A stretch of 64,000 nt of DNA from Apostichopus japonicus (taxonomy: Eukaryota > Echinodermata > Holothuroidea > Aspidochirotida > Stichopodidae), in contig NC_092575.1 of assembly GCF_037975245.1 (NCBI RefSeq), forward strand, positions 7,413,001 to 7,477,000, read 5' to 3'. Positions 3,678 to 59,700 of this stretch are shown here, in pieces. The notes below the pieces were generated by a model that searched no databases, was not told the DNA's origin, and worked only from the letters and a program-made list of their open reading frames with translations. The translations under genes and the position numbers were made by a program. How positions within the stretch are numbered: the stretch's first letter is position 1; the number at the start of each line of letters is the position of its first letter.

Positions 3678-4457
3678 CAAACTTGAAGGACTGCACGTCA
3701 ACAGCCACATCAGGAGCGATTTGTGCAGTATCACACCAAGACCAAGACCAATTGATCGGTGCTACTGCTAGCCTACAATTTATCAGTGCTAGCCTATAGT
3801 AGTAGCCTAACAATATACTAGTGATAACTGATAGTGATAGTCATAACTTGTGTACCGCCAAATCACGTACACTCGCCGATTCTCCTCAATAATCTGTTCT
3901 GAGCCAAAAATTTGCTCTCGCATGTGTCTTACCTGATACCAAAGCAAATTGGAACCTTGGCTAATGAGTTAAAACTTTTTAGTTTCGACTGTGAGTGTAA
4001 CTTAGTGTAGGTTTCAGATTAGTAATATTACTAAAACCACAGATTTTTTTATTTGGGAAGTCGAAGATAGTTATAGTTGACCATGCCGCGGTATACATAC
4101 GTCTTTTACTTTGCTTGGGTTCTAGCGTTCACCCTGCCGCCACTGAATTATTTCCCATGCGGCCTACCATAGACGATGAAAGCATGTTATATTCTAGTGT
4201 AAACATCTATAATGTTGCGTTCACACCTTACACACTTTTATCTATTTTTTCCCCATTCTACATGTTTCAATGAATCAATCGATGTCACGCAAATATCCCA
4301 TTCCCACCACGACACTTTACAGACACTGTTCATCAAGGCCCCTACCCCCAATCCCGCTCGCAAAATTTATTTTTATATGGTAATTGTTCTGATGTTCTGT
4401 ATTTTCTCCAAAAAAGTGGGTCGCATTGAGAAATGAGCCCGCATTTGTTACAATAGC
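3678..4457. other. Intergenic, no gene recognised
   Basis: No gene, RNA or clear repeat structure seen. It may include untranslated tail of the LINE remnant just upstream. Confidence 0.35.
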
Positions 4458-4835
4458 TTAAAGGGTGTGAAGACTCGCGAAAAATGAACGTCTAATGCCG
4501 GTAATCTGACCTAGTTTCGAACGAGGAGTAACAGAAGTGTTAGACACCACCGATCCCAGAACATACACACAGCTTGCTACCGACGGTAATTAGACCAGCT
4601 CCCTGATTAGACACTAGTGTACAGTCAGTACATATACAGCTGTGGTCAATACCCACAGCACAGTGTACAAACGATAAAGCGATGGACAATTCAGGTCCAG
4701 CTAAAGATAACAAGGTATCATGTTTCATTAATGTCTGCATTTTGTAGCGACACGAACAAAACGTCACTTGCAAGCAACAGAAAGTTAACTTTTTGAGATG
4801 GCCCCACGCGGTTTGGGGCGAGTCTTCAATAACTT
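4458..4835. mobile_element. MITE, copy 1 (TTAAAGG...GACTCGC ends)
   Basis: Starts TTAAAGGGTGTGAAGACTCGC and ends GGGGCGAGTCTTCAATAA, so the ends are imperfect inverted repeats. A second copy in the same orientation at 59229-59594 shares long blocks such as AATCTGACCTAGTTTCGAA, GTAACAGAAGTGTTAGACAC and GTCACTTGCAAGCAAC. It has no coding capacity. The left TTAA suggests a TTAA-targeting superfamily, but the right flank does not confirm it. Confidence 0.65.
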
Positions 4836-5547
4836 GACGAAAGTAAAACAGACAAATTAAATAGCTGGATTAACAACCATCAGGCAAAACACTCCTTTAT
4901 GCAGTGGCGTCGCCAAAGGGGGGGGGGCAGGGGGCACGTGCCCCTGGAAAACCTAGTACCCCCGAGTGCCACCCCATCTGAGATTTGGGTTGGTAAAAAA
5001 TATATATATATATTTTGTTATATTCAACTCCCATCACCTGAGTTGGTTTTCATAAGGACAAAGAAGCACAGTAATTCTTATTTTCTTCAAATGAGCTGCG
5101 AAAAAATGAAAAAGTTTATTCTTGACCGTCGGGTATCGAAGTCGTAACCCGCGCCATCACATCAGGTGTCGATATTTACATTGAATTTGTCAGTGCTCAC
5201 GCCATACCAGCGGCAATACACGTCCGCTTCGCCGCCATACTCGATGTGTGATCAAACTTTGGATTGCATGGTGAGATCCCTGATAGGAGCCAATAACGAT
5301 GCTGGAACCTGTTACATCTTAATAGATAATGGGAGAAAACGAGAAGGACAAGAAAGGAGTAGGGGATCATGCACACATTAATTCAACAAATGTAGGTTCT
5401 ATTGATAGGGTTAGGCATAATATAGACAGCATGTGGTTCATATCCTGTGCAAAATTCTGCGCGTTGTTTAAATCATAACCTAAAAAATAGCAATTTCTGT
5501 ATATATCTTCAGATCGAAGTTAGCATCAAATGTGGCACCATTTTGCA

Positions 5548-33489: not shown

Positions 33490-34397
33490 GTCCCGGTCGC
33501 GAAATTATTTTTCCCACTTCGACGCGGCCATATTAGCATAATGGGCGTGGACTATCGGTCGTTGTTACGGTTTATTGGTCACGTCACAGACTATGCAGTG
33601 ATATCTCTCGGGTGTTTGTTTGGGTGCTGAAAGTTCTCAATTAAGTTACATGTCAGGGATTCTAGTACACGTACCAGTAAAATAAATAGTATAGTACAGA
33701 GGGACATTGCTATTTAGGCATAGTTATAGCAGGGAGCTGCTACTCTAACAGTAACAGCTCCCTGGTTATAGTTAATACAGACGCAAGTGACAACTGTTTA
33801 ATAAAATGGGTAGAATATTTCAAGTCCGTAACAATACCCAGTAGCGTACGTAAACTAATGATGAAAGCACGTAGGCTCCTTACTGCCGTTTAAAAGGGGG
33901 TTCATTTATAAATGAACAAATAATTTAGAATGATGGATAAAACAATATGGGGCACAATACAATACATGTATAGGTTTTTAGCATTGAAAGGTCAGTGGGC
34001 CTACCTGGTGTAATATGAAGTGTAATAATCAATACCACGGGAGGTTCATTTATAACTTTTCCAGACCCTGCTGTCACGGGAGGTTCTTTTCCAGACACGG
34101 GAGGTTCATAACACATCTAATAAACAAACACAGTTTGATTTTGTGATGGAATTTACCTCAAGAGCTCCATAAGACCCGATTGACTGGGAGGAGCAGTCGC
34201 ACATCATCATGCATCTCATGAAGTCATGTCTTAGGCCTGAGTATATTAGGCCTGAGTATATTAGCTGAGTATATTATTAAAGAGCTATACGTTAGAGCTC
34301 GAAGTCGAAGTCACAAACTTGCCGGCCTGTGACGTATTTCATAAGCCACGCCCATGTGGCCGCGTCGAAGTGGGAAAAATAATTTCGCGTCCCGGTC
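33490..34397. mobile_element. Mutator-like MITE with 9-bp target duplication
   Basis: Element 33499-34388 starts GCGAAATTATTTTTCCCACT and ends with its reverse complement. The terminal inverted repeat is about 33 bp perfect (through CGACGCGGCCA) and then continues imperfectly with GGGCGTGG. It is flanked by GTCCCGGTC at 33490-33498 and 34389-34397, a perfect 9-bp duplication. Long TIRs plus 9 bp is the signature of Mutator (MULE) elements. It is 890 bp, noncoding, and itself contains a 35-bp hairpin insertion. Confidence 0.8.
33723..33771. mobile_element. Mini-hairpin element A (35 bp) with 7-bp direct repeats
   Basis: CAGGGAGCTG at 33730, a middle CTACTCTAACAGTAA, then CAGCTCCCTG ending 33764. 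Bounded on each side by GTTATAG (33723-33729 and 33765-33771). A sister copy with its own, different 7-bp repeats is at 57363-57407. Confidence 0.7.
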
Positions 34398-44975: not shown

Positions 44976-45306
44976 CACCTTGCATTTCTGATGCAATATC
45001 TCACCTCCCTATACATCACAGATAGGGAAATGAGTTAATGGAAACCTACCATGCGAACTGCGAAAGTGTAGCAAATGTAGGGTAAGTCTTTAATATGTTT
45101 GTTAGGTGAAAAACAACCTCCATATCATTTTAAATTTGTCACAGGGTGTTGTTTCCGTAACAACTCCCTGGTTGTACCATAACAAAACTCACTGAACTAA
45201 TGATATCAGTGATATCATTAGTTTGATATCATGTCACAGTTTCTACTCTGTCTCGTGGTCCTTCTGGCGGATTTTTAGTGTCAGACCAACACAGCGCAGT
45301 TACATT

Positions 45307-53700: not shown

Positions 53701-56700
53701 TTTAGTGTGTAAATCAATGGGGGCTTTTAATAGGCATATACTGTATATGCTATCAGATAGGCTAAAAGATGTATACAAGAGAAAGTTCTGTACACTTAAT
53801 TTGTGAACTGCCTTCAGAGCTCACCGCATTGCCAGACAGTATGTATATATTATAGTTGTTAATACAGTACTGTACCTGCCTCGTGGCTGATTCAATCACG
53901 GAGGTCTGTGTTACCTCCATGATTCAATTAATATCCAATGATCTAACTACTGTACTGTACTGTGGAAGTGCTACTGTACAGTAAGTACAGTATGTAGGAG
54001 TAAGTTATTTTATTTATTTGTACCATCAATATTAATTTATATTTTATAACATGATGATTATTAAATTAATATACTTAGTAATATATATATGATAAATGAT
54101 ATGCAATAATAAGAATTAGTACTTAGTAGTACAATATTACTGAACATGTCTATGGAATAGTTTAGTATTCAAATTCTCTGTGTACTGTAAGCAGATTTGA
54201 AGGCATGGAACTGTGTCTCATACAAACTATACAAAAAAAAGTGCAAATACTGTGTTCATATTTTGCACTTGTATAGCAGGTTGCATATTTTTGCATGGCA
54301 TTTTGCTGTGTGATTCACAGATAAAGTATTCCCCTACATATTCTGTGTATAATCAACACACAAAAAAAAAACCTACTTTGTTTTGTACCTTTATTAGTAC
54401 TGTTCATTGTGCCATCAAAAATAAAGCAGAGTTAATTGCACTGAGCAATATATTATTGACTGAGCTTTATCCAGGTCTGTACCTCTTATCCTAGTTTCAT
54501 TGGTTCAAATCTTGTTCAATCAAATATATTTACTCTTTAAAATTCATCCATAATGTTCCCCCTCAGTTTTCTATGCATGATTTACTTAAATACTAAATAT
54601 ATGTCAAGAAACAGTTTTCTCTTGAAACCCCTTCCCTACCACTATATATACAGTATGGTTGAAATCAAACAATGGAACTGGGGCGTGAATTGTGCTTTTA
54701 TGGCACTGTGCCAATTTCTGTAATAAAATTGATTAGATCCAGGGATATGCCTCTATTTATAGAGATGTCCCTAATAACATTGAGTTACAGTAAAAACATG
54801 TTCAACTAGAGCTTCCATGTATTATCCTCCTGCTAAGTTCAGTGAAATTACAGTCTGAGCTACCAGCCTTGGCAGTTACGCTCACAATTCAATCAATACT
54901 GTATGCACTGAGATACTATATGAATGAGATGTGAGTATTATGGTTCTATTCCTGGACATGATGTCATACTGTAGGCTTCAGCCATATATTGCAGTCAATA
55001 ATGTATACACTGAGATACTATATAATGAGATGTGAGTAATGTTTCTAATCCTGGACATGATGTCATAGGCTTCAGCCATATATTGCAGTCAATAATGTAT
55101 ACACTGAGATACTATATAATGAGATGTGAGTAATGTTTCTAATCCTGGACATGATGTCATAGGCTTCAGCCATATATTGCAGTCAATAATGTATACACTG
55201 AGATGCTATATAATGAGATGTGAGTAATGTTTCTAATCCTGGACATGATGTCATAGGCTTCAGCCATATACTGCAGTCAATAATGTATACACTGAGATAC
55301 TATATAATGAGATGTGAGTTACGTTTGCCTGGATCTGTTCGTCATAGGCTTCCGTTGTACTTGGGTTCTTTTAATTAAGTTCCCTATTCAGGGCTTTTTT
55401 CCAACGTAGTAGTTCAACTGACCATTGTTCTCCACCCGAAGAGCCCATGTGTGAAAATACTCACAATGGTATTTAAATTCAAAGTCTAGCAGTGCAATGG
55501 AGGGGTAATGATGCATCAATCATTTCAATTTGTTATTTGCTAAAATTACTGCATGTTTTGCGTTTTAAAAACAAACATACATGGTGAGTAAAAGGTGCAT
55601 GTTGTTGTAATGCTGGCAGGTTTATCGTCACAAATGAGAAAAAAAAACCAAACTCAAAACAACAGCTCAAAAGTATTTTGCCTATGTGTGCAATCTCATA
55701 CATGTGGCTAACGTGTAGTAAATTTATCCAGGCAGTACTACAGTTTTCAATATTTTCAATTTCTGAGTAAGCAATGTATTTATGATTTAGAAAAGTAGGA
55801 ATCAAGATCCTCACCAAAATACATCATGTTCATTCAAATTGAATGATATATATACTGTAGATCTATTTATGTGGCCAATTATGTATTTCCTTGTCCATTA
55901 ATATGCAAACAACTCCCTACAAGCACTGTACAGTACATTCATGTACAGTATACCAAGGTTACATTCCTTCTTTAATACATCCTTGTAGTACTAGTGCACA
56001 CTGCCACTCCTTACAATCTCACAGTCCCAGCTATGTTCAGTGAGCTGTTGACAAGTATTCTAATTGGTTGATATCATCTCATGTACTGTTAGAGGGGAAA
56101 ATCTCAGCTTCTTCATTGTGGAAGCTTCCCATGCCACATTCCAATACATACAGCTCACATGCCTTATTGAAGCTGTACAATACAACTTCCCAATTTCTTG
56201 GAATGATAACCAGTTGCTTTTAAGAAAGCCTACAGTAAGATGTGAACAATGTTTTTAAGATAGACTTTTTAAGAAAGCCTACAATTAGATGTGGACAATG
56301 TTTTCAAGGTAGACTTTTGAAGAAAGCCTACAATCAGATGTGAAGTTGTGAACAATGTAAGTTTTCAAGGTAGACTTTTATGAAAGCCTTCAGTAAGATG
56401 TCAACAATGTTTTCAAGATAGACTTTTGAAGAAAGCCTACAGTGAGATGTCAATAATGTTTTCAAGGTAGACTTTTGAAGAAAGCCTACAATTAGATGTG
56501 AACAATGTTAGTTTTCAAGGTAGACTTTTTAAGAAAGCCTACAATAAGATGTGAACAATGTTAGTTTTCAAGGTAGACTTTTATGAAAGCCTACAATAAG
56601 ATGTGAAGTTGTGAACAATGTTAGTTTTCAAGGTAGACTTTTATGAAAGCCTACAATAAGATGTGAAGTTGTGAACAATGTTAGTTTTCAAGGTAGACTT

Positions 56701-59700
56701 TTTTGAAAGCCTACAGTAAGATGTGAACAATGTTTTCAAGGTAGACTTTTGAAGAAAGCCTACAGTGAGATGTGAACAATGTTTTCAAGGTAGACTTTTT
56801 AAGAAAGCCTACAATAAGATGTGAACAATGTTAGTTTTCAAGGTAGACTTTTATGAAAGCCTACAGTAAGATGTCAATAATGTTTTCAGGGTAGACTTTT
56901 GAAGAAAGCCTACAGTAAAATGTGAACAATGTTATCAAGGTAGACTCTTTTAAGAAAGCCTACAATAAGATGTGAAGTTGTGGACAATGTTATTTTTCAA
57001 GGTAGACTTTTAAGAAAGCCTACAGTAAGATTTTAACAATGTGTTCAAGGTACTGTAGACTCTGTTTATTTCCCCCTTTAGATATTTAAGTGGGTAGAGA
57101 CTAGTGACCATCATGTTAAGTCGTTAGTGCTACGAAATTTACTTCCAAAAGCTCTTCTCTCACTGTGCCTCATCTCCGTTGAACAGATTGACTCTACTCT
57201 ATCAACTCTACCTATAGCCTGCAGTACAGTATAAAGACAAATTTGAAACATTTTAGAAAATTGCAACTACACATACCCTCTAATTAAACACTAGTTAAGG
57301 ATGAACACAGACCAATTCAATGATTTCTTTTCTACACGCTCGCCTAAGCTCTAAGTCATGATATCAAACCAGGGAGCTGCTACTCTAATGCAGCTCCCTG
57401 ATCAAACTATCCTTTCCAGACTAGTACAATACTGTAAGTGTGTGCTCTCTCATCATTGATACCAGCACAAAACCAAGTTTTTATTTACTACTACCCTCAC
57501 ATCTGCTGTATATAGCCTATAATATTTTACAGTACTTTCCTTGACCGGACAATTCGTTTGTGCATATTTCTAAAGTTTGATATTACTGTATTTCATCCTT
57601 GGAAACTTTTCATCCAAGCAACAGTAAAGGATCTCCAGATTTCAATGCAAGGTATGACATTGTAGAATGGACAATGACATACTGTTCTTGAGGTACAGGT
57701 AGGTCCTACTGTACCGTATATCACTGTATGAAATTACGAACATGGACACGTAGAGATTTGAATCATTTTTGTACTTTTTAACATTTATACCTTTCCAACC
57801 AACATCCGGGGATGGGAAAAATTTGGTCAAACGCTGCCGAGCAGCGATTTTATGGATGCAGGATGGTAGTTTCAACCTAGAAGAACATCTGCTAAATTTA
57901 TACTCGGTAGTAGACCACTGACTTTGATTAATACGACAGTGACTATCCACAGAACGGCAGAATGGTGGCTCATGTTTAGAAACGACCAGATTTGTTCAAT
58001 TCTGTACAGTAATAGTCACGGTGTGAGAGACTGCAATGTACAGTATGTAGGACGTTCCTCCACCGTTTTATTTTGATCAAAAGTTATTTCCTTCTCATCT
58101 CTTCCGCAGACGAAGCACATGAAATATGCACGTTGAACCCTGTTTCAACTCGGACTGGGACCGTATCTGGCAAGGAGACATGGTCGGTAGCCTTCACACC
58201 AGATTATAGCTACTTTGCCTGGTCCAGTGGAAGGGGCATTGTTCGCCTCATACCTTGGATCAGGGATGACAACACATAGTAAGTACAGTGTCGTGGAGCT
58301 GCTTTAAATAGGGCAGACCCTGGCTCAATCTGGCCCAGAAAGATTTCCATCTGCTCCACCCTGCCCTTATCAGATATACAGGCCCTTAAGGACCCTGGGT
58401 CTTGAACACCCCTACTGGTCTAACCTACACATTGCTCGATCTAGGCAAAGTTAGACTTTATTTTAGTTCCCTCAGGTCCTTTGCTCCAATCAATGTTTCT
58501 TTCTGGCTTTGTGGAAGTTTAAGTTCAGCTATAGAGATAAGTTAGACAATGTGTTGCAATATGCATACTGTACTCACAAGTTTTTTGCTTTGAAATGTTA
58601 TACCTGTTGGTTATGTCGCAACAGAACAGCATCACAATTAAATTTGTTCTTATAAGTTTGAGGGCCTGAAATTTCAATCCAAGCAGGATTTCCTTTAAAG
58701 TCAAACTGAAACAAAAACAGATTTAAGGACACATTCAGGACACATTCAGGAAACATTAAGGAAACATTATGGACAATGCTGGACAGATGGACAGACAACT
58801 ATATATTGGACCGATGAAAATAGTAACGATAGACTGAAAAAGAGGCGATGAGTCAGCTCAGGAGATGAAAGGGCTATGGAGACTAACTGTACAGAAGGGT
58901 GTACAATGTGGGTCAATAAGTAAGGAGGTGGTGAATTGGGGGGAGGGGTGGGGGGGAAGAAAAGGGAGATAAGGTGGGATACAAAAGGGAGTGCTGAGGA
59001 TGGACGGGAAGTGTACTAATGGAGAGTGGAGGAACCGAGAAAGGGGCTACTGTAGGGTGTGGAGAAAGGACGAACGATATTCAGTCATTCCAAATTAAAT
59101 TTGTTATAATTATGACCTCTCACCATGACCGGTCACCTTGGGTCAATCTTCTTCCACATTCTACCATCCAAACAAAGTTCTAGTAAAATGTCACACAGTT
59201 ATGTTAAAGTGGTAGATAATATTTCTCCCTAAAGGGAGTGAAGAATCGAGCACATAGAAACATCTGATGCCTATAATCTGACCTAGTTTCGAATGAGGTG
59301 TAACAGAAGTGTTAGACACCACCATCGATCCCAGAAAATACACACACAGCTTGCTACTGTAGGTAATTAGACACTAATGTACAGTCAATACATGCAGCTA
59401 TGGTCAATACCCACAACACAGTGTACATAGCAGCATGGACATCTCAGGTCTAGATAAAAGATAACAAGGTATCACATTTCATTACTGTCTGCACTTTGTA
59501 GCGACAAGAAAAAAAACGTCACTTGCAAGCAACGGAATGTTAACTTTTGCAGAGGGCGGCACGCGGTTGGGAGCGAGTCTTTAACGCCTTTAAAGTGATT
59601 CACTGATCATCTTAATTTTTTTTTGTTGGCTTTACAGTGATTATCGTGCCTTTAATGAATTTGTCAACAAGAACAATCACCGACCATCTATTCACGAGGA

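What the first reader, a model, noticed from the sequence alone, without database searches (positions are those of the whole stretch)
33723..33771. A 35-bp hairpin bounded by perfect 7-bp direct repeats: possible ultra-small mobile element
Seen directly: CAGGGAGCTG / CAGCTCCCTG inverted ends around a short middle, with GTTATAG on both sides. A sister 31-bp copy at 57370-57400 shares the ends and the TACTCTAA middle but has a different flanking repeat (ATCAAAC). Different flanks on the same core are what insertion with target duplication produces. Elements this short are far below usual MITE size, and 7-bp duplications are unusual. I do not know a described family like it. It could be a relic of a larger palindromic transposon.
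Basis: partly seen in the sequence, partly recalled or inferred. Interest (0 to 1): 0.75.

Follow-up and report, generated by a model that had tools for sequence, protein, structure and literature searches.

The report
Scars of excised P-type transposons
The tiny hairpin is most likely not a mobile element but the scar left when a P-element-like jumping gene cut itself out and the break was joined; this animal genome holds many such scars, a natural record of how broken DNA was repaired.

Summary
In detail: a 35-bp and a 31-bp hairpin share the ends CAGGGAGCTG/CAGCTCCCTG, each between perfect 7-bp repeats. Genome-wide, 470 places have both exact ends (control 0); a sister end, CAGGGAGTTG, has 1164 (control 0).

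They are best read as excision footprints of P-superfamily transposons. The full form is 40 bp: 20 nt of terminal repeat from each side, joined head to head. Few are longer. Shorter forms lose bases at the central junction. Some keep one arm only (TSD-20 nt-TSD, TSD-10 nt-TSD). Targets lean to ATAGTNNNACTAT, as for P and 1360. One repeat shows the same site empty, with a 10-nt remnant, and with a 20-nt remnant plus flank deletion. Drosophila P junctions, from 17-nt overhangs, look alike.

The 33,730 copy rides in a larger repeat: 39 of 39 other scored copies (186 candidates) carry it with the same flanks.

Three P-transposase loci have a related left end, CATGGAG. No intact element with CAGGGAGCTG ends was found in what I read, so for that subfamily the P link rests on ends, target and scar structure.

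The parts
33723..33729 (.). left target-site duplication GTTATAG
33730..33749 (+). 20-nt remnant of one terminal inverted repeat, CAGGGAGCTGCTACTCTAAC
   Evidence: the 20-nt limit
33750..33764 (-). 15-nt remnant of the other terminal inverted repeat (variant arm CAGGGAGCTGTTACT on the minus strand)
33765..33771 (.). right target-site duplication GTTATAG
33640..33860 (.). stretch of a larger, multiplied repeat that carries the footprint as a passenger (39 of 39 other scored copies at 99-100% identity)
33492..33533 (+). left arm of a 42-nt inverted repeat around the passenger region, possible end of the host repeat (not tested in other copies)
   Evidence: 93% complementary with 34354-34395
34354..34395 (-). 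right arm of the same 42-nt inverted repeat
57363..57369 (.). left target-site duplication ATCAAAC
57370..57400 (.). second footprint: 19-nt arm, one filler base, 11-nt arm
57401..57407 (.). right target-site duplication ATCAAAC
4589..4612 (.). one-armed footprint ATTAGAC-CAGCTCCCTG-ATTAGAC (10 nt of one end) in a repeat whose copy in L139 is an empty site
53890..53928 (.). footprint of the CATGGAG subfamily: ATTCAAT-CACGGAGGTCTGTGTTACCTCCATG-ATTCAAT
45142..45170 (.). probable decayed footprint of the CAGGGAGTTG subfamily; flanking 7-mers differ at 3 of 7 bases

Best explanation
Each hairpin is the excision footprint of a P-superfamily cut-and-paste transposon. Shown by sequence: two inverted-repeat remnants, mostly of at most 20 nt, joined head to head between 7-bp (sometimes 8-bp) target duplications, with base loss, filler bases or larger changes at the central junction. 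Inferred: the element inserted at an ATAGTNNNACTAT-like site and duplicated 7 bp; its transposase later cut one strand at the outer end and the other about 20 nt inside each end; this left 20-nt 3' overhangs of the terminal repeat on the donor DNA; end joining, in part through microhomology, sealed them. The 33,730 footprint then multiplied as a passenger of a larger repeat; the 57,370 footprint is an independent event.
For: 470 places with both exact ends, control 0. Length: spacers 0-25 give 470 places, spacers 21-51 (overlapping range) give 22, of which by my reading 15 hold nested or tandem arms, 6 are 41-46 bp and 1 is 71 bp; the longest of the 50 places listed is 40 bp. After a full 20-nt arm the next bases are those of the other arm, a filler or the duplication. 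One-arm forms with a duplication: L010, L034 and L041, window 4589-4612. One repeat site in three states: empty in L139, 10-nt remnant in the window, 20-nt remnant with about 70 bp of one flank lost in L136/L118. Duplications: 21 of 26 distinct sites with at most 1 mismatch against 14 of 650 control pairs. Targets: 44 distinct exact-duplication sites give A47 T59 A48 G53 T81 percent per half-site; published: P and 1360 tend to ANAGT/ACTNT (passages of PMC4168063), 1360 has a modal 7-bp duplication and motif GTTNAAC (passages of PMC3276498). Drosophila P repair junctions have the same anatomy with 17 nt: blunt joins, microhomologies, short fillers, one-arm products (section 9 of PMC5466332; 17-nt stagger in passages of PMC7776569). 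P transposases are present: 45 matches to PF21787. Three of 20 transposase loci read have a CATGGAG..AAGGAG left end 1.1-1.5 kb upstream of the first exon-like match; that motif, drawn from these loci, occurs 0 times in 141 kb of other held DNA. L147 has PF21787 and PF21789 above cut-off in order on that strand. CATGGAG footprints with their own 7-bp repeats: window 53,897 and L141.
Against: No element with both CAGGGAGCTG ends and an interior was found. Of 80 loci read around exact 20-mers (of 381 genome-wide), 51 have two arms and a duplication, 12 two arms without one, 9 one arm (or one arm plus a short stub) with one, 8 neither; one of the 9 (L119) rests on a 1-mismatch 7-mer some 20 bases off, one of the 8 (L118) is explained by the flank deletion. 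In the 8-10 kb read downstream of these nine single-arm sites, only three weak (3 of 14 mismatched) arm-like hits occur, none with the right flank. None of the 20 transposase loci read has the 20-mer within 5 mismatches; one (L145) has a lone CAGGGAGCTT. The right ends of the CATGGAG transposase loci were not found, and two other places share that left end with no transposase match in the 3 kb read. Only 9 of 44 targets have both GT and AC; 30 have at least one. 5 of 26 distinct sites lack a duplication. The 20-nt arm is longer than the published 17 nt.
Confidence: 0.91

Rival explanations
1. Ultra-small (24-40 bp) non-autonomous transposons moved in trans by a P-type transposase.
For: Short cores with clean 7-bp duplications at many different sites; some cores recur at sites with different flanks, for example the 29-bp and 31-bp forms.
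Against: One-arm remnants between duplications have no second end to pair; junctions vary by central base loss, fillers and tandem arms; a flank deletion at L118; the 35-bp form recurs because its surrounding repeat was copied. Recurring junctions are also seen among Drosophila P excisions.
Confidence: 0.04
2. The hairpins are solo-end insertions: transposase inserted cut 20-nt end fragments, not a whole element that later left.
For: Whole CAGGGAGCTG elements were not found in what was read; arms stop near 20 nt.
Against: Needs two separate short fragments joined in opposite orientation at one target; does not give the flank deletion at L118 or a single 10-nt remnant. Excision products of this anatomy are documented.
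Confidence: 0.02
3. The footprints come from a transposon superfamily other than P that also cuts far inside its ends.
For: No transposase was found joined to the CAGGGAGCTG subfamily itself; the 20-nt arm exceeds 17 nt.
Against: 7-bp duplication and ATAGTNNNACTAT-like target as in 1360 and P; the related CATGGAG end lies upstream of P-type transposase exons in three loci; the long stagger is described as a feature that sets P apart from other characterised cut-and-paste transposons (passages of PMC7776569).
Confidence: 0.04

Closest known systems
Excision products of the Drosophila P element (P{wa} repair junctions, PMC5466332, section 9 read)
   Same: Target duplication, up to one overhang length of each inverted repeat, blunt or microhomology joints, short fillers, some one-arm products.
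   Different: 17-nt arms and 8-bp duplications there; 20-nt arms and mostly 7-bp duplications here; induced in the laboratory there, fixed in an animal genome assembly here.
1360 / Hoppel / ProtoP (P superfamily, Drosophila)
   Same: 7-bp target duplication, palindromic GT..AC target core (passages of PMC3276498 and PMC4168063). From recall, not from a call: 1360 ends start CAGAGAACTG, close to CAGGGAGCTG.
   Different: No full element with these ends found here; the footprint load of 1360 was not examined.
Galileo (P superfamily)
   Same: 7- or 8-bp duplications with consensus GTATTAC or GTANTAC (passages of PMC4168063).
   Different: Galileo has long terminal repeats (abstracts listed); none were seen or specifically sought here.
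MITEs
   Same: Short, inverted ends, target duplications, many sites.
   Different: No interior; some copies keep only one end; the length limit fits twice a cut offset.

Membership tests
P superfamily (source of the footprints) | target duplications of 7-8 bp | tested here: met
   15 of 26 distinct sites exact at 7 bp, 6 more with 1 mismatch; control 14 of 650 pairs with at most 1 mismatch; 8-bp cases L106 and L044 read
P superfamily (source of the footprints) | palindromic target motif ANAGT..ACTNT of P and 1360 | tested here: met
   majority bases of 44 sites fit (only 9 of 44 have both GT and AC) against passages of PMC4168063
P superfamily (source of the footprints) | footprints with long remnants of both terminal repeats (staggered cut far inside the end) | tested here: met
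   comparison
P superfamily (source of the footprints) | stagger of 17 nt exactly | tested here: inconclusive
   20 nt for CAGGGAGCTG; for CAGGGAGTTG 49 of 50 listed places are 25-34 bp (34 = 2 x 17), one is nested
P superfamily (source of the footprints) | transposase of P type coded between the same terminal repeats | tested here: inconclusive
   Left end CATGGAG.. upstream of P transposase exons in L031, L032, L147; right ends not found; no transposase seen with the CAGGGAGCTG 20-mer in 20 loci
MITE / short mobile unit | two ends present in the copies | tested here: not met
   one-arm remnants between duplications
MITE / short mobile unit | same core at independent sites | tested here: inconclusive
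   Some junction forms recur at sites with different flanks, but the window's 35-bp form recurs with the same flanks
MITE / short mobile unit | shown to transpose | not testable with these tools
   no population data or assay

The most novel reading that the evidence does not exclude
A P-superfamily lineage with a 20-nt stagger, longer than the 17 nt known for P, spread through this genome and was removed almost completely by its own excision, so that it is now known only from its scars; the scars (470 and 1164 places with exact ends for two subfamilies, copies in larger repeats included) form a natural catalogue of germline end-joining outcomes.
Probability: 0.3. Interest if true: 0.55.

Novelty: new member of a known kind. 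Interest (0 to 1): 0.45.

Why it matters
These palindromes could easily be taken for tiny unknown elements, as here. Read as scars they map past P-type activity, show which end sequences and cut offsets the lost transposases had, and offer many natural break-repair junctions from one animal lineage. They also suggest that the long stagger of P is not fixed at 17 nt.

Tried and rejected
Looked for an intact CAGGGAGCTG parent around 12 and then 8 P-transposase loci and 8-10 kb downstream of nine single-arm sites: none found. Tried to find element borders by aligning transposase copies: homology ran past the pieces read or gave no terminal repeats. Looked for a footprint-free copy of the 33,730 host repeat with exact flanks and a spacer of 0-30 bases: 0. 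Looked for right ends of the CATGGAG transposase loci: none in the pieces read; pairs of 10-13 matches in 17 with imperfect duplications were taken as chance. A window translation for a family search failed on stop codons. Paper searches: (excision footprint + P superfamily + genome) gave 0 papers. PMC10983969 was seen in passages and not relied on. PMC2895639, PMC2775673, PMC3573991, PMC3688188, PMC8230255, PMC10027918 and PMC13228809 were seen only in listings. The species of the window was not identified.

Full report
Observation. The window is C15:7413001-7477000 of a 671.6-Mb genome in 35 contigs; 470 places there have CAGGGAGCTG and CAGCTCCCTG 0-25 bases apart, and the reversed pattern gives 0.

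Flanks. I read the flanks of 44 of the 50 places that one search listed. 30 of 44 have exact 7-bp repeats, 8 have one mismatch, 6 have 4-6 mismatches. By flank these are 26 distinct sites: 15 exact, 6 with one mismatch, 5 without. Left flank of one against right flank of another: 14 of 650 pairs with at most one mismatch, 1 exact.

The window's own copy. The 35-bp form recurs with the same flanks on several chromosomes. A 221-bp query across it has 186 candidates; the 40 scored, the window included, all span the footprint at 99-100% identity. Only the best candidates are scored, so copies without the footprint could be among the rest; a search with exact flanks and a spacer of 0-30 found none. 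An inverted repeat of 42 nt surrounds the region (33492-33533 and 34354-34395). So this footprint was copied as a passenger. The 57,370 footprint has its own duplication.

Anatomy. The full form is 40 bp: CAGGGAGCTGCTACTCTAAC joined to its reverse complement. Spacers of 21-51 give 22 places: by my reading 15 hold nested or tandem arms, 6 are 41-46 bp and 1 is 71 bp. Pooled over the short loci and the window, 110 records with both arms reduce to 74 distinct by flank; the commonest lengths are 40 (17), 29 (14), 31 (10) and 35 (6); duplications are exact in 39, one mismatch in 12, two in 5, three or more in 18, a few of which are 8-bp duplications read with a 7-bp ruler. This pool was partly chosen by the presence of the full 20-mer, so its lengths are not a genome-wide distribution; in the 50 places listed the commonest are 29 (12), 35 (10), 27 (8) and 40 (7, six of them in one group). 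After a full 20-nt arm the next bases belong to the other arm, the duplication or a filler. L010 is duplication, 20 nt, duplication; L034 and L041 are the same with 1-2 shared bases; L033 has 4 nt of the second arm; tandem arms occur in L001, L052.

Three states of one site. Window 4589-4612 has ATTAGAC, 10 nt of one end, ATTAGAC. The same repeat in L139 has ATTAGAC once, an empty site. In L136/L118 it has ATTAGAC, the 20-nt end, and then the repeat resumes about 70 bp further on, so one flank was lost. The two remnants may come from one insertion copied with the repeat or from two insertions; either way they are different repair outcomes.

Target. 44 distinct exact-duplication targets, both strands, give A (47%), T (59%), A (48%), G (53%), T (81%), three weak positions and the mirror image, that is ATAGTNNNACTAT. 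It is a lean, not a rule: 9 of 44 have both GT and AC, 30 at least one. P and 1360 are reported with ANAGT/ACTNT (PMC4168063, passages), and 1360 with a 7-bp duplication and GTTNAAC (PMC3276498, passages).

Mechanism. P transposase cuts one strand 17 bp inside the end and leaves 17-nt 3' extensions (PMC7776569, passages). Drosophila repair junctions after P excision are tabulated in PMC5466332 (section 9 read): duplication plus up to 17 nt on each side, blunt joins, microhomologies, small insertions, one-arm products. The forms here match these classes, with 20 in place of 17. I did not read the flanks of that subfamily's places.

Transposase. PF21787 (P-type RNase H domain) has 45 matches in the genome, none in the tool's 14 control genomes. 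Of 20 transposase loci read (some are copies of each other), three (L031, L032, L147) carry CATGGAG[CG]TA..AA.. followed by AAGGAGA, in the right direction, 1.1-1.5 kb upstream of the first exon-like match. The motif was drawn from these loci; it is absent from 141 kb of other held DNA. Two more places in the genome share that left end, without a transposase match in the 3 kb cut around them. L147 has PF21787 and PF21789 above cut-off and PF21788 below it, in order. Footprints of the CATGGAG type lie in the window (53,897) and in L141, and nested in L108. Right ends of these loci were not found in the pieces read. The CAGGGAGCTG 20-mer was not found within 5 mismatches in any of the 20 loci; L145 has a lone CAGGGAGCTT.

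Missing parent. There are 381 exact 20-mers (289, 92). A script over 80 loci read around them finds two arms and a duplication in 51, two arms without in 12, one arm (or one arm plus a short stub) with a duplication in 9, neither in 8. L118 among the 8 is the flank deletion above; L119 among the 9 is doubtful. For these nine unclear or deleted sites I read 8-10 kb downstream: three weak arm-like hits, none with the right flank. Intact CAGGGAGCTG elements are therefore rare or absent among the sites read; most 20-mers were not read.

Verdict. Ordinary in kind, unusual in number, with a 20-nt stagger that I could not confirm against a parent.

Noticed in passing
window 4450-4850: Belongs to a very abundant repeat: 2990 candidates at first look; the 39 other scored copies are 85-88% identical. 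Their match lengths suggest that most lack the footprint, but I read only two of the repeat's copies.
   Followed up: partly
window 53897-53921; L141 6112-6136: A 25-bp CATGGAG-type footprint with nearly the same junction at two sites with different duplications, perhaps a favoured microhomology join.
   Followed up: no
L109 (C8:32264277): The two 7-mers around this footprint, GTTACAC and GTGTAAC, are reverse complements rather than direct repeats.
   Followed up: no
L012, L038, L108: Two footprints of different subfamilies share or overlap one target duplication, as if the site was hit twice.
   Followed up: no
G000:C1:1238968-1310568: Six 40-bp footprints with nearly the same sequence within 72 kb, likely a local duplication; flanks of only one were read.
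   Followed up: no
L147 (C20:4575000-4584000): P-type transposase gene in pieces with a CATGGAG left end; an upstream reading frame matches a RAG1 importin-binding profile below its cut-off (E 0.0011).
   Followed up: partly
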